From assembly GCA_017627975.1 (NCBI GenBank), contig JAGAFT010000091.1:1-64000 (forward strand): a stretch of DNA of 64,000 nt. Direction: 5' to 3'. The translations under genes and the position numbers were made by a program. This stretch comes from Oscillospiraceae bacterium (GTDB taxonomy: Bacteria; Bacillota_A; Clostridia; Oscillospirales; Oscillospiraceae). Shown one piece after another: positions 46,627-58,063 of this stretch (its first letter is position 1; each line of letters starts with the position of its first letter). Below the pieces are notes generated by a model that was not told the origin of the DNA, searched no databases, and saw nothing but the letters and a program-made list of their open reading frames with translations.

Positions 46627-46827
46627 ATGGAAAAAGCAGTACTGAACGATGAACAGCTGGACAACGTCACCGGCGGCTCCAGAATCACCTATACGGTGAA
46701 GTCGGGCGATACCCTGGAGGGGATTGCCAAGAAGATGGGCGTTTCCGTCAACAAGCTTGCAGAGTGGAACGGCATCACAGACCCGAACTTCCTGATGGTC
46801 GGCCAGGCGCTGAAGGTCAAGTTCTGA
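46627..46827 (+). CDS. Double-glycine leader fused to a LysM domain (cargo 1)
   Basis: A 66-residue protein starting at the ATG after GGAGG. MEKAVLNDEQLDNVTGG is a typical C39-peptidase leader: Leu -12, Gln -8, Leu -7, Val -4, Gly-Gly. Cleavage would release a 49-residue protein that is essentially one LysM domain: YTVKSGDTLEGIAKKMGVSV, NKLAEWNGITDPNFLMVGQAL. LysM binds N-acetylglucosamine-containing glycans such as peptidoglycan. There is no Sec signal, so export by the peptidase-ABC transporter encoded 4 kb on is the likely route. Own regulated promoter and terminator. Confidence 0.85.
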   Translation: MEKAVLNDEQLDNVTGGSRITYTVKSGDTLEGIAKKMGVSVNKLAEWNGITDPNFLMVGQALKVKF

Positions 46828-46850
46828 TCGGCAGTTTGCTGAACCTGATG

Positions 46851-46894
46851 AAGGAATCGGCGCGCAGGAAAATCCTGCGCGCCGATTCCTTTTA
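46851..46894 (+). terminator. Terminator of the LysM cargo 1 gene
   Basis: AAGGAATCGGCGCGCAGGA pairs with TCCTGCGCGCCGATTCCTT, followed by TTATC. Confidence 0.9.
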
Positions 46895-46899
46895 TCTGA

Positions 46900-46928
46900 T
46901 TGATTTGATAGCCGGAGAATGATAAAAT
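46900..46928 (+). promoter_or_regulatory. Promoter of the kinase-regulator operon
   Basis: TTGATT (46900-46905), 17 bp, TAAAAT (46923-46928). Confidence 0.6.
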
Positions 46929-47013
46929 ACACAATATGGGTAAGCTTTGCAGGACGACGGCGAAAGCCGTTGCAAGGAATATCCCGCGGAGACGGAAAGG
47001 ATGCGGCGCTGAC

Positions 47014-54976: not shown

Positions 54977-55486
54977 ATGGCGCATCCGTTAATCAACGGC
55001 ACTTTTTACAATGCAATCCTGCATTTTGAAGACAGTGATGAAGCGCAGGATTATTACTACAAGGTCATGAACAGTGTAGTGGAGCGCAACGGAAAGCAGC
55101 ACACCGTGCGGGATCAGATCCTCCGTGTCTATTCGATGTTGTTTTGTGACGACATCGGCGCGGTGGCCGGCCAGATCGCCAGTCCTGAGGATGTGGAGGC
55201 GACGGCGGACCGTCTCTATACCGGGGCAATGGGCTTTGACCCAAGGCATTGGTATCGGATGCAGCACCATTTCCCTGTGATCGACGAAGACAATTACGAG
55301 CGCTTTGCGGCACTGGTCATCGCCGATCTCAGTGCCGGCCCGCTGCGGGAAGCGGCTCTGAACGGCGGCGACATGCTGATCGTCGGAGAAAGAGACCCGC
55401 TGACCATGACGCCGGAAGAGAGAGAACATCAGAAAGTCAGGACGATCGATGTAAATGACGTTCTTCTTGGAGGAGAAAAAGGATGA
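54977..55486 (+). CDS. Uncharacterised protein of the secretion operon
   Basis: A 169-residue soluble protein, acidic and mostly helical, starting at the ATG at 54977 four bases after the exporter stop. Distinct segments are FYNAILHFEDSDEAQDYYYKV, DQILRVYSMLFCDDIGAVAG and MGFDPRHWYRMQHHFPVIDE. No signal, membrane helix or leader is seen, and I do not recognise the family. The stop overlaps the next regulator (ATGA), so it may be a cytoplasmic helper for cargo or transporter. Confidence 0.65.
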   Translation: MAHPLINGTFYNAILHFEDSDEAQDYYYKVMNSVVERNGKQHTVRDQILRVYSMLFCDDIGAVAGQIASPEDVEATADRLYTGAMGFDPRHWYRMQHHFPVIDEDNYERFAALVIADLSAGPLREAALNGGDMLIVGERDPLTMTPEEREHQKVRTIDVNDVLLGGEKG

Positions 55487-56292
55487 CCGTCCTTATTGTG
55501 CTGGAAAACGAAACAGAGCTGTTCAAGACCAGAGATCTCATTATAGAGATTGTTCCGGATGCGGATTTGCTCTGCTTTGAGAACAGTCTGCCGGCTCTGG
55601 CGGCAGCCCGTTCCAGAGAGATCGACGTTGCCGTTCTGGATACGAAGCTCACGGAACTCGCCGGAATTGACTTCGGTCAGTATCTTCAGGACCTTTATCC
55701 TTTTATCAACCTGATCTACCTTTCCGAGGACAAGGAATTGGGTTACGCAGCCATGAACCAGCATGCAAGCGGATACCTGCTGAAGCCCGCCTCCCGGGAC
55801 AATCTGCAGAGGGAACTTGAGGACCTCCGTCATCCGGCGGCGCAGAAGAACCAGAAGAGGCTCTTTGCGCAGACGTTCGGGAACTTCGATTTGTTCGTGG
55901 ACGGGAAGCCCGTGGCATTCAAGTACTCCAAAACCAAAGAGATTGTCGCGCTGCTGATCAACAACCGCGGCGCCCAGACCTCCAACGGAGAAATCATCGC
56001 CACGCTCTGGGAGGATGACGGAGACCCGGAAAAGAAGGCGTCCTATCTCTCGAATCTGCGGCAGGACCTTCAGAATACATTTACGAAACTCAAACTGAAC
56101 GGAATTATTCTGAAACAGCGCGGAAGCATGGCAATTGCAAAGGACCGGATCGAATGCGATCTGTATGACTGGCTGGAGAATAAGCTGAATTCCAAGTATC
56201 AGTACCTCGGAGACTACATGAATCAGTACAGCTGGCCGGAGACGGTTCATGCGGAGCTGGATGAGATCAGCTATTCACTCTACGACGATTAA
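55483..56292 (+). CDS. Response regulator with SARP-type DNA-binding domain (2), altered receiver
   Basis: A 269-residue protein. The receiver keeps the phospho-Asp (AVLDTKL) and YLLKPAS, but the acidic pair reads VLENE where VDDE is normal, so Mg-dependent phosphorylation may be weak. The C-terminal domain (QTFGNFDLFVDGKPVAFKYS, KTKEIVALLINNRG, IATLWEDD) parallels that of regulator 1. No kinase gene is adjacent. It may respond to another input or form mixed dimers with regulator 1 (inference). Confidence 0.85.
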   Translation: MTVLIVLENETELFKTRDLIIEIVPDADLLCFENSLPALAAARSREIDVAVLDTKLTELAGIDFGQYLQDLYPFINLIYLSEDKELGYAAMNQHASGYLLKPASRDNLQRELEDLRHPAAQKNQKRLFAQTFGNFDLFVDGKPVAFKYSKTKEIVALLINNRGAQTSNGEIIATLWEDDGDPEKKASYLSNLRQDLQNTFTKLKLNGIILKQRGSMAIAKDRIECDLYDWLENKLNSKYQYLGDYMNQYSWPETVHAELDEISYSLYDD

Positions 56293-56385
56293 AGAGAGAA
56301 GGATGATCCATAAAAAGACTCAGAGAGAAGCAAAAGCTGTTCACTCTGAGCAAAGCTGAAATCGAAAGAAGAGAGAATCCGTTCC

Positions 56386-57825
56386 ATGAAGAAGCTGTTC
56401 CTGCAGATCCTGATCGTGAGCATCCTGTTTCTTGGCATTCTTTGCCTTTGTATCCGATTGGGCGGGAACGGGCTGATCCTCTATTTTGAGCAGCCGCCTG
56501 AGGCCACAGGGATGGAAGTCCGGTTCAATCCGGAAAACATCGTCCAACTGGCGGACAGTCAGGTTCTGACGGAAGAACAGGAAGTTCAGCTTTTATTTCA
56601 TGCCGTACAGCGAGGCAAGACAGAAGTTAGCATCCTCTGGGAAGGACTGGACGAGGACTCGCTGTATGAAAAAGAGATCCGAATGACCATCCGATCTCTT
56701 CCGATGGGAATCCTGACAGACAGTATAACCTGGAATTTCACGGGATGGGAATATCTTGTGATCTGCCTGTCATTTTACTTTCTGTCCCTTTCCCTTATCT
56801 TGCTTCTCGCTTCGCGCAAAGAACAGAAACGTGTTTTCTTCAGCTACCGTTCGATCCGCTTCCTCGGCCTTGCAATCTTCTTTTTTGCCCTCAGCTTCTT
56901 CCGGACGGAGTATCTGCTCGCATTCCTGAAGGGGCGAAACGCCGGGACCGTCTGGACGCTGCTGCTGGGGATTATTTCTTCCGCACAGACCTTTGTACGC
57001 TGGACCGCTTATCTGCTGGCCGTATTTGCTGTTCTGACGGCGGTGAGCAATGTTGTACTGATGCGGCATGAAGGCGTGCGGCCGGCAAACATGCTTGGAA
57101 TCCTGGTTGCGGCCGGAATTGTCGGCGGGGCGCTCATCGGGATCGGGCTTTCCAATTCAAGACTGACCTTTCCGATGCGGAATGTTCTCTGCAATGTCTA
57201 CGCAGGACTGTTTGTCTATTTTGAATGTCTGCTGACGGCGACGGTAGTCCGCGCGCTGGAAGCCGGAAAGCATGAACCTTCGTATGATAAGGACTACATC
57301 ATCATCCTGGGATGCCGAATCCGGCAGGATGGGACGCTCTATCCGCTGATCCGCGGAAGAGTGGACCGTGCCATCGAGTTCGCGGAAGCCCAGGAGGCTG
57401 CCACCGGAAAAGTGGCGGTTCTGGTACCGAGCGGCGGACAGGGGAGCGATGAGCCCATGTCAGAGGCGGAAGCGATGGCAGGCTATATCCGAAGCAAAGG
57501 CGTGCCCGATGACAGAATTCTGGTGGAGAACCGCTCCCAGACAACGAAAGAGAATCTTGATTTCTCACGAAGTCTGATCAGGGAAAGAGAAGAAAACCGG
57601 AAAACTGCATTTTCCACCTCAAGCTATCATGTGTGCCGGGGTGGGATTCTGGCAGAAGAAATGGGATGGAACATTGACGGCATGGGAAGCCGTACCAAAT
57701 GGTATTTCTGGCCGAATGCTTTTTTGCGTGAATTCATCGGACTGCTGGCCGAGAGCTGGATGCAGCAGCTGGTCGCGGTGTCGGTTATTGCCGTTCTCAG
57801 CGGATTGCTGACAATAATTATGTAA
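56386..57825 (+). CDS. Polytopic DUF218 (YdcF/SanA-like) protein
   Basis: A 479-residue protein. An N-terminal signal anchor and an outside domain (to about residue 120) are followed by six or so helices (125-300) and a DUF218 domain: DYIIILGCRIRQDGTLYPLI, RGRVDRAIEFAEAQE, VPSGGQGSDEPMSEAEAM, FSTSSYHVCRGGIL. DUF218 proteins act in envelope biogenesis. The gene directly precedes the second GG-LysM gene (13 bp), linking it to that locus. Confidence 0.8.
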   Translation: MKKLFLQILIVSILFLGILCLCIRLGGNGLILYFEQPPEATGMEVRFNPENIVQLADSQVLTEEQEVQLLFHAVQRGKTEVSILWEGLDEDSLYEKEIRMTIRSLPMGILTDSITWNFTGWEYLVICLSFYFLSLSLILLLASRKEQKRVFFSYRSIRFLGLAIFFFALSFFRTEYLLAFLKGRNAGTVWTLLLGIISSAQTFVRWTAYLLAVFAVLTAVSNVVLMRHEGVRPANMLGILVAAGIVGGALIGIGLSNSRLTFPMRNVLCNVYAGLFVYFECLLTATVVRALEAGKHEPSYDKDYIIILGCRIRQDGTLYPLIRGRVDRAIEFAEAQEAATGKVAVLVPSGGQGSDEPMSEAEAMAGYIRSKGVPDDRILVENRSQTTKENLDFSRSLIREREENRKTAFSTSSYHVCRGGILAEEMGWNIDGMGSRTKWYFWPNAFLREFIGLLAESWMQQLVAVSVIAVLSGLLTIIM

Positions 57826-57838
57826 ACCAGGAGTAAAC

Positions 57839-58063
57839 ATGGCGGAGAGAATTAAATTGATGGACGACAGGGAAATAGAACAGATCACCGGCGGAGCTTA
57901 CACAGGATCCGTTTTTGTCTATACCGTACAGGAAGGTGAAAGCCTTTCGGTACTGGCACATCGCTTTGGCACTTCGGTCAATGTGATTGCGGAGCTGAAC
58001 GATATCAAGAGCGCGAAGAACGTGCAAGCCGGAATGAAGCTGCTGATTCCGCTGAAAGCCTGA
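57839..58063 (+). CDS. Double-glycine leader fused to a LysM domain (cargo 2)
   Basis: A 74-residue protein from an ATG after CAGGAG. The leader MAERIKLMDDREIEQITGG has Met -12, Glu -8, Ile -7, Ile -4 and Gly-Gly; the 55-residue remainder is one LysM domain: FVYTVQEGESLSVLAHRFGT, SVNVIAELNDIKSAKNVQAG, MKLLIP. Same design as cargo 1 but clearly diverged in sequence. It ends the secretion gene cluster and is followed by a strong terminator. Confidence 0.85.
   Translation: MAERIKLMDDREIEQITGGAYTGSVFVYTVQEGESLSVLAHRFGTSVNVIAELNDIKSAKNVQAGMKLLIPLKA

What the first reader, a model, noticed from the sequence alone, without database searches (positions are those of the whole stretch)
46627..58063. 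Double-glycine leaders fused to bare LysM domains, beside a dedicated C39 exporter
Two small genes (46627-46827 and 57839-58063) encode a canonical leader (MEKAVLNDEQLDNVTGG; MDDREIEQITGG) followed at once by a single LysM domain and nothing else. They bracket a locus with a C39 peptidase ABC exporter, partner exporter and short HlyD-like protein. GG-leader exporters are known for bacteriocins and modified peptides; here no modification enzyme is visible and the cargo is a glycan-binding domain. The inference is a Sec-independent route placing small cell-wall-binding proteins on this cell or its neighbours.
Basis: partly seen in the sequence, partly recalled or inferred. Interest (0 to 1): 0.88.

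Follow-up and report, generated by a model that had tools for sequence, protein, structure and literature searches.

The report
Wall-binding proteins shipped by bacteriocin-type exporter
Gut bacteria related to this one appear to use an exporter known for antibiotic-like peptides to send out tiny proteins that are little more than a cell-wall-gripping domain, a cargo not described for such exporters in the papers searched.

Summary
Two intact genes (46627-46827; 57839-58063) encode a canonical double-glycine leader joined to one LysM domain. The second closes the exporter operon. The exporter is NHLP-type: both ABC subunits pass their NCBIfam cut-offs. Its C39 domain is 76% identical to LahT150, whose structure with a bound leader is solved.

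It recurs. In the genus of the nearest relative, leader-spanning LysM matches occur in 32 of 36 exporter-positive and 1 of 25 exporter-negative genomes; CW_7, another wall-binding domain, with the same leader: 26 of 36 versus 1 of 25. LysM and CW_7 genes form tight cassettes. Other branches of the exporter sit beside leader-bearing SH3, PepSY or Cys-rich proteins, and in 8 of 80 loci a radical-SAM protein of one cluster; none of these 8 is among the 17 loci with LysM or CW_7 cargo.

Best reading: Sec-independent export of bare peptidoglycan-binding domains that coat the producer's wall. Export is strongly inferred; target and benefit are untested. New variant of a known kind.

The parts
43985..46519 (+). 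lipoprotein with solute-binding domain; a recurring neighbour, possible sensor
   Evidence: PF13416 8e-11 and PF01547 1e-9; a 43% identical lipoprotein (cut by the locus end) follows the LysM/CW_7 cassette in L006
46567..46596 (+). sigma-70-like promoter match ahead of the first LysM gene
   Evidence: TGGACA-18-TAAAAT, 10 of 12; consensus match only
46627..46827 (+). GG-LysM gene A: 17-aa leader plus 49-aa LysM core
   Evidence: close relatives
46845..46900 (+). strong terminator-like hairpin, so gene A looks monocistronic
   Evidence: -41 kcal/mol, z -9.06
46936..48267 (+). sensor histidine kinase of the PF06580 type
   Evidence: PF06580 6.2e-21, PF02518 2.1e-14
48267..49079 (+). response regulator with Trans_reg_C domain
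   Evidence: PF00072 1.8e-24, PF00486 1.9e-6
49301..49711 (+). RsbW-like anti-sigma ATPase
   Evidence: PF13581 5.2e-21; promoter-like site 49240-49268
49848..50147 (+). STAS anti-anti-sigma-like protein, first gene of the close-packed exporter run
   Evidence: PF01740 1.2e-12; TIGR00377 over its cut-off; promoter-like site 49776-49804
50154..50570 (+). short HlyD-like adaptor (138 aa)
   Evidence: TIGR03794 positions 2-91 of 421, 33 bits, below the 156.2 cut-off; cluster with members in 49 of 81 loci including the window, median 157 aa
50583..52763 (+). NHLP-type ABC1: C39 peptidase, membrane domain, ATPase
   Evidence: TIGR03796 929.2 bits, cut-off 853.3; C28/H102/D118
52777..54972 (+). NHLP-type ABC2, no peptidase domain
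   Evidence: TIGR03797 712.1 bits, cut-off 709.4; Pfam finds no C39
54977..55486 (+). conserved 169-aa protein of unknown fold
   Evidence: no Pfam or NCBIfam match; relatives in 8 of the 80 loci plus the window
55483..56292 (+). second response-regulator-like protein
   Evidence: PF00072 4.1e-9
56386..57825 (+). membrane protein with DUF218 domain
   Evidence: PF02698 1.7e-24
57839..58063 (+). GG-LysM gene B: 19-aa leader plus 55-aa LysM core, last gene of the exporter run
   Evidence: same place in L001 17223-17447
58064..58125 (+). terminator-like hairpin closing the run
   Evidence: -32.9 kcal/mol, z -7.13

Best explanation
A Sec-independent secretion pathway for bare peptidoglycan-binding domains. 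The GG-LysM proteins (and GG-CW_7 proteins in relatives) are made with a short hydrophilic leader. The C39 domain of the NHLP-type exporter binds the leader through hydrophobic residues at -4, -7 and -12, cuts after GG, and the ABC1/ABC2 pair with its short HlyD adaptor passes the roughly 50-90-residue core across the membrane. Outside, the core folds and binds peptidoglycan non-covalently, mainly on the producer, as a coat that could shield wall sites from lysozyme, phage or competitor lysins, or anchor partners. Two-component regulators and an RsbW/STAS pair probably tune expression. Shown by sequence: genes, leader-peptidase match, gene order, co-occurrence, purifying selection. Inferred: cleavage, export, wall binding. 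Speculative: shielding.
For: Leader: in 30 aligned GG-LysM proteins GG in 30; -12 L/I/M/V in 30; -7 L/M/V/I in 29 and A in 1; -4 V/A/I in 30. [quoted passage not shown] C39: 108 of 142 residues identical to LahT; triad C28/H102/D118 matches LahT C27/H101/D117 and PCAT1 C21/H99/D115. Co-occurrence: genus, 32 of 36 exporter-positive versus 1 of 25 negative, p 7.7e-12; family, 4 of 13 versus 0 of 137, p 3.5e-5. GG-CW_7: genus 26 of 36 versus 1 of 25, p 4.6e-8; in the family sample the same four genomes. Gene order: gene B is last in the exporter run in the window and L001; in L155 CW_7, LysM, LysM, STAS, HlyD, ABC1 and ABC2 lie on one strand (STAS and HlyD there named by eye, ABC1). LysM, SH3 and CW-7 domains bind peptidoglycan non-covalently (PMC5817068, passages). 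LahT150 tolerates diverse cores; the PCAT1 barrel can hold the whole cargo peptide. Purifying selection. No cysteine in either window core.
Against: Nothing here shows cleavage, secretion or binding. The order sample gives only 1 of 11 exporter-positive genomes with GG-LysM (p 0.056), so the exporter family at large does not need this cargo. G404 has GG-LysM and G361 GG-CW_7 without a detected exporter; 3 of 36 exporter-positive genomes of the genus have neither cargo. In other branches the same exporter type lies near radical-SAM proteins (8 of 80 loci) and next to Cys-rich or PepSY cargo, which does not fit a wall coat. A single LysM usually binds weakly (recalled). ABC2 passes its cut-off by 2.7 bits and the HlyD-like protein fails its own. 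Most related genomes are metagenome assemblies by their titles and their completeness is not told.
Confidence: 0.68

Rival explanations
1. The exported LysM and CW_7 proteins act on other cells: they are non-catalytic antibacterial or adhesion factors that bind neighbours' peptidoglycan, a bacteriocin-like use of a bacteriocin-type exporter.
For: NCBIfam names the exporter a bacteriocin exporter; several cargo genes in many genomes, e.g. 7 leader-spanning LysM matches on 5 contigs in G008; polymorphic toxins also carry LysM as adhesion domains (PMC3482391, passages).
Against: No toxin domain and no recognisable immunity gene beside the cargo by Pfam, although immunity was not searched for systematically. 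The ten compared gene pairs are conserved, dN/dS 0.14-0.33, rather than diversified. Shared cassettes and classes across species fit a house-keeping role better.
Confidence: 0.15
2. They are matrix or scaffold proteins, like the cyanobacterial EbfG proteins: GG-leader proteins secreted by a C39 exporter that build or organise a biofilm surface together with Sec-exported partners.
For: EbfG1-4 show that C39/GG export serves non-antibiotic proteins (PMC4997328; PMC9981879; passages). In seven aligned loci a protein of 617-812 residues with a Sec- or lipoprotein-like start (by eye) lies beside GG-LysM or GG-CW_7 genes.
Against: LysM and CW_7 are folded glycan-binding domains. No relation of EbfG to these proteins was tested. 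No member of that large family was seen in the window.
Confidence: 0.12
3. The peptides are RiPP precursors whose LysM part is modified by an enzyme not recognised here, possibly encoded elsewhere in the genome.
For: The exporter family is known from RiPP clusters (PMC2887384, passages). In other branches 8 of 80 loci hold a radical-SAM protein of one cluster; one member was checked and has PF04055 and SPASM. LanC-like proteins occur in 2 of 21 related genomes; in G011 the LanM-like gene lies about 4 kb from a GG-LysM gene. SPASM proteins occur in 16 of 21.
Against: None of the 8 radical-SAM loci is among the 17 loci with LysM or CW_7 cargo (L059 has another CX3CX2C protein about 13 kb from its LysM genes). 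YcaO in 0 of 21. No SPASM hit on the exporter contig in the 13 of 21 genomes that could be compared. No CX3CX2C motif in the longest non-overlapping ORFs of the window. No cysteine in either window core. G010 has a Nif11-leader peptide near its LanM-like gene.
Confidence: 0.05

Closest known systems
NHLP/NHLM-type export cassette (TIGR03794, TIGR03796, TIGR03797; PMC2887384)
   Same: ABC1 with C39 peptidase and ABC2 pass the curated cut-offs; a HlyD-like gene lies just upstream; GG cleavage motif on the cargo
   Different: HlyD-like part is truncated; cargo has a short class-II-like leader, not a nitrile-hydratase or Nif11 leader; the core is a folded LysM domain, not a short Cys/Ser/Thr-rich peptide; no modification enzyme recognised at the locus
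LahT (AMS/PCAT transporter, Lachnospiraceae C6A11; PDB 6MPZ; PMC6363468)
   Same: C39 domain 76% identical, same catalytic triad, same leader-recognition positions -4, -7 and -12
   Different: LahT lies in a lanthipeptide operon with Nif11-type precursors
EbfG1-4 and PteB of Synechococcus elongatus (PMC4997328, PMC9981879)
   Same: small GG-leader proteins needed for biofilm, exported with a C39 transporter
   Different: EbfG1-3 form amyloid; the proteins here are LysM and CW_7 domains
Fungal LysM effectors such as Ecp6 (PMC3861536)
   Same: secreted LysM proteins proposed to shield the wall or sequester glycan fragments; Ecp6 is the best PDB match of the LysM profile
   Different: eukaryotic, three matched LysM stretches in Ecp6, chitin ligands; PMC3861536 says Ecp6 itself does not shield hyphae; analogy only

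Membership tests
NHLP/NHLM-type exporter | ABC1 over TIGR03796 cut-off | tested here: met
   929.2 versus 853.3 bits
NHLP/NHLM-type exporter | ABC2 over TIGR03797 cut-off | tested here: met
   712.1 versus 709.4 bits, narrowly
NHLP/NHLM-type exporter | HlyD part over TIGR03794 cut-off | tested here: not met
   33 versus 156.2 bits, N-terminal positions 2-91 only
NHLP or Nif11 precursor peptide | nitrile-hydratase-like or Nif11-like leader | tested here: not met
   Pfam finds only LysM families; NCBIfam finds LysM-bearing families and weak bacteriocin-leader matches, all below cut-off
C39/PCAT double-glycine substrate | GG at -2/-1 and hydrophobic residues at -4, -7 and -12 | tested here: met
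   both window leaders; GG in 30 of 30 aligned proteins, the three positions hydrophobic in 30 of 30 if Ala is allowed
C39/PCAT double-glycine substrate | cleaved after GG by the cognate peptidase and exported | not testable with these tools
   needs an enzyme assay and mass spectrometry
LysM domain | PF01476 over gathering score | tested here: met
   65.4 and 50.0 bits versus 20.9
LysM domain | binds peptidoglycan or chitin | not testable with these tools
   inferred from the family
Bacteriocin (class II or RiPP) | adjacent modification enzyme or immunity gene | tested here: inconclusive
   no modification enzyme recognised among the scanned locus genes; immunity genes are too diverse to exclude

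The most novel reading that the evidence does not exclude
Rumen and gut Oscillospiraceae run a regulated secretion system whose purpose is to coat their own wall with bare LysM, CW_7 and, in other branches, SH3 domains: a bacterial counterpart of fungal LysM effectors that masks peptidoglycan from host lysozyme, phage endolysins or rival lysins using the same binding modules those lysins use.
Probability: 0.3. Interest if true: 0.87.

Novelty: new variant of a known kind. Interest (0 to 1): 0.7.

Why it matters
C39/GG exporters are usually read as bacteriocin, pheromone or RiPP exporters, and NCBIfam names this one an NHLP bacteriocin exporter. Here the same machinery travels with what look like unmodified, folded wall-binding domains in a group of gut bacteria. 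If export is confirmed, it widens the use of these exporters beyond antibiotics, signals and the cyanobacterial biofilm proteins, it explains many orphan double-glycine genes, and it offers a compact system to ask what a cell gains by covering its wall with bare binding modules.

Tried and rejected
Structure of the 169-aa operon protein 54977-55486: AlphaFold model at mean pLDDT 46, discarded. The beta-sandwich GG cargo gave a good model (pLDDT 81) but no PDB match at E 0.001 or better, so no function is claimed. The genome of the window is not held, so its own full GG repertoire could not be counted. The simple terminator scan missed both hairpins, which folding then showed.

Considered and rejected: chance GG motif (shuffles); pseudogene (intact frames, dN/dS); a general feature of LysM proteins (0 of 36 fetched loci whose LysM or CW_7 match missed the leader carry one by the matrix, while 28 of 30 loci do); intracellular protein (that LysM ligands are extracellular is recalled).

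Limits of the counts. 'Leader-spanning' means a profile match that starts at position 8 or earlier of 72 (LysM) or 110 (CW_7) in a small open frame; for most of the sampled genomes the leader itself was not read. Near misses not counted: G182 (from 9), G194 (from 10), G305 (from 9, with a stop inside). The match list was cut near E 2.5e-8, so the order count rests on listed matches; the lists were not cut. The three samples were drawn by the tool around G001, the genome of L001, not around the window. One search used 21 of 80 loci, chosen partly because GG-LysM had been seen there, so it is descriptive only. The alignment A1 left out L027 (has a leader) and L031 (no leader) of the 32 LysM ORFs. 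One search listed 120 of 335 proteins. L056 was dropped from the tree because its ABC1 is cut. The tree labels use a regular expression of mine and count only cargo within the fetched flank: L007, L010, L011, L013 and L016 are labelled none or otherGG although their genomes have GG-LysM elsewhere. The ORF lists take the longest ORFs, so some true genes are displaced by antisense frames (in the window 49301-49711 and 55483-56292, which were scanned separately).

Papers: ten searches. Nothing in their listings pointed to export of LysM proteins by a GG leader; the library holds only open-licence PMC papers. PMC2887384, PMC8794836, PMC9981879, PMC3861536, PMC5817068, PMC3482391, PMC4997328 and PMC5524665 were seen as passages, PMC6363468 as abstract and passages; the others as listings.
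Full report
What is there. The two ORFs are real and intact. Each is a double-glycine leader followed by one LysM domain. Gene A (46627-46827) has a promoter-like site ahead of it and a strong hairpin behind it (-41 kcal/mol, z -9.06), so it looks monocistronic. Gene B (57839-58063) starts 13 bases after a DUF218 gene and closes a close-packed run of genes from STAS (49848) through HlyD, ABC1, ABC2, a 169-aa protein and a response regulator; the widest gap inside this run is 93 bases. 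A second hairpin follows gene B. Gene B is therefore probably co-transcribed with the exporter; this is read from spacing, not measured.

The exporter. ABC1 (929.2 bits, cut-off 853.3) and ABC2 (712.1, cut-off 709.4) are NHLP-type by NCBIfam; the HlyD-like protein matches only positions 2-91 of the 421 of its model and fails the cut-off. Its cluster has members in 49 of 81 loci with a median of 157 aa, so the short form is usual in this group. The C39 domain shares 108 of 142 aligned residues with LahT150. C28, H102 and D118 align with the LahT triad C27, H101 and D117 (PMC6363468, passages) and PCAT1 C21, H99 and D115 (PMC8794836, passages). [quoted passage not shown] Gene A has V-4, L-7 and L-12; gene B has I-4, I-7 and M-12. 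Across 30 aligned GG-LysM proteins all have GG and a hydrophobic or alanine residue at these three positions.

It repeats. A scan of the 80 loci fetched with ABC1 and the window gave 113 GG-leader rows against 0, 2 and 1 in shuffles. GG-LysM genes lie in 15 of the 80 loci and GG-CW_7 genes in 11, together in 17; many loci are cut by contig ends. CW_7 (9.6e-31), SH3_3 (4.6e-7) and PepSY (5.7e-14) were confirmed by Pfam on examples; zinc-ribbon matches stay below Pfam's gathering scores. Of the 163 proteins listed by the three database searches (the last list cut at 120 of 335) 157 carry the leader motif. In 21 genomes chosen from the loci, 18 hold leader-spanning LysM matches, one to eight per genome and often on several contigs; G018, G020 and G021 hold none.

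Genus of the relative G001, 61 genomes: exporter over cut-off in 36; leader-spanning GG-LysM in 33, of which 32 have the exporter; exception G404; p 7.7e-12. GG-CW_7 in 27, of which 26 have the exporter; exception G361; p 4.6e-8. Either cargo: 33 of 36 versus 2 of 25; p 1.8e-11; G386, G391 and G395 have the exporter and neither cargo. Family, 150 genomes: 13 over cut-off; GG-LysM in 4, all among the 13; p 3.5e-5. GG-CW_7 is in exactly the same four; the CW_7 matches of G146 and G254 start at model position 66 and lack the leader. Order, 197 genomes: 11 over cut-off; among the listed matches GG-LysM in 1 of them and in none of the 186 others; p 0.056. So in these samples the cargo nearly always comes with the exporter, but the exporter family does not need this cargo. 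Species are related, so these p values overstate independence, and an exporter can be missing from an incomplete assembly. On a tree of 80 ABC1 proteins the label LysM/CW7 needs 9 changes against 15.6 in shuffles, as low in 0 of 500; 15 of its 17 rows fall in one set of 30 rows.

Cassettes. CW_7 and two LysM genes lie within about 1.2 kb in L085; CW_7 and LysM are 43 bases apart in L146. In L155 the order on one strand is CW_7, LysM, LysM, STAS, HlyD, ABC1, ABC2 (ABC1 confirmed, STAS and HlyD named by eye). Other neighbours are a D-Ala-D-Ala dipeptidase (PF01427) and a YkuD protein in L006 and DUF218 proteins in L001 and L017, all plausible wall genes. A solute-binding lipoprotein adjoins gene A in the window; a 43% identical one, cut by the locus end, follows the cassette in L006.

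Modification. No modification enzyme was recognised among the locus genes scanned with Pfam, and no CX3CX2C motif in the longest non-overlapping ORFs of the window. In other branches the picture differs: 8 of 80 loci (L024, L036, L037, L045, L050, L057, L061, L072) hold a radical-SAM protein of one cluster, and the one checked has PF04055 and SPASM. None of these 8 is among the 17 loci with LysM or CW_7 cargo, and some of their Cys-rich GG cargo may be RiPP precursors rather than zinc ribbons. L059, a wall-cargo locus, has a different CX3CX2C protein about 13 kb from its LysM genes. In 21 related genomes YcaO is absent, LanC-like proteins occur in two and SPASM in 16. In the 13 genomes whose exporter contig is known or 71 no SPASM hit lies on it. 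In G010 a Nif11-leader peptide lies near the LanM-like gene; in G011 the LanM-like gene lies about 4 kb from a GG-LysM gene with other-strand genes between. So some of these genomes may also make lanthipeptides; shared use of the exporter is possible and untested.

Mechanism. Shown by sequence: gene structure, peptidase-leader match, gene order, co-occurrence, purifying selection (dN/dS 0.14-0.33 in ten pairs). Inferred: cleavage after GG and export of the core. LahT150 accepts diverse cores and the PCAT1 barrel can hold the whole cargo peptide, which makes a core of about 50-90 residues plausible. Inferred from family knowledge: non-covalent binding to peptidoglycan, stated for LysM, SH3 and CW-7 domains in PMC5817068 (passages). 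Speculative: shielding of the wall. The analogy is with fungal LysM effectors, for which wall protection and fragment sequestration are proposed, though Ecp6 itself does not protect hyphae (PMC3861536, passages); Ecp6 is the top PDB match of the LysM profile.

Position against what is known. The exporter is a member of the NHLP group by two of three models, with a truncated adaptor. The cargo is not an NHLP or Nif11 precursor. EbfG/PteB already shows that C39 exporters handle non-antibiotic small proteins. What appears new is cargo consisting of recognised wall-binding domains from more than one fold family sharing one kind of leader and one exporter. The searches pointed to no such report in the held library. 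Verdict: new variant of a known kind, interest 0.70.

Noticed in passing
L001:8106-8543, L006:1650-2075, L019:14441-14893: A GG-leader protein with a core of about 125 residues, predicted as a confident beta sandwich (pLDDT 81) without a PDB match at E 0.001; related segments also lie in long ORFs of L022, L023 and L029.
   Followed up: partly
L043:1055-1357, L042:13738-14004, L057:9106-9366: More distant relatives of the exporter sit beside GG-leader SH3_3, PepSY and zinc-ribbon-like proteins; the last two are odd cargo for a wall coat.
   Followed up: partly
L036:10759-12156, L037:10476-12011 and 13700-15148, L061:15942-17426, L024:10210-11673: Radical-SAM proteins of one cluster lie near the exporter in 8 of 80 loci, in L036, L037 and L061 beside Cys-rich GG-leader peptides: possibly an undescribed or known class of modified peptides using the same exporter type.
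   Followed up: partly
L002:13685-15790, L006:17948-19990, L156:2690-4543: A protein of 617-812 residues with a Sec- or lipoprotein-like start recurs beside GG-LysM or GG-CW_7 genes in seven aligned loci; no convincing Pfam family in those scanned.
   Followed up: partly
window 54977-55486: A conserved 169-aa protein of the exporter operon with no known family; its model is of low confidence.
   Followed up: partly
L154:1302-1586 and 2592-5351: A Nif11-leader peptide near a LanM-like protein in a genome that also has GG-LysM genes: a possible lanthipeptide pathway that might share the exporter.
   Followed up: partly
L009:21569-22178, L156:6508-7427: A pair of small proteins that look by eye like cyclic-nucleotide-binding domains lies downstream of the LysM cassette in two loci; not confirmed by a family search.
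   Followed up: no
window 28167-28733 and 41974-42525: Two very similar acetyltransferase-like proteins (named by eye) on the minus strand, 13 kb apart, possibly a recent duplication.
   Followed up: no
L030, L076: Contigs labelled Dehalococcoidales and Eggerthellaceae carry exporters about 70-75% identical to the window's: either transfer between phyla or misbinned contigs.
   Followed up: no
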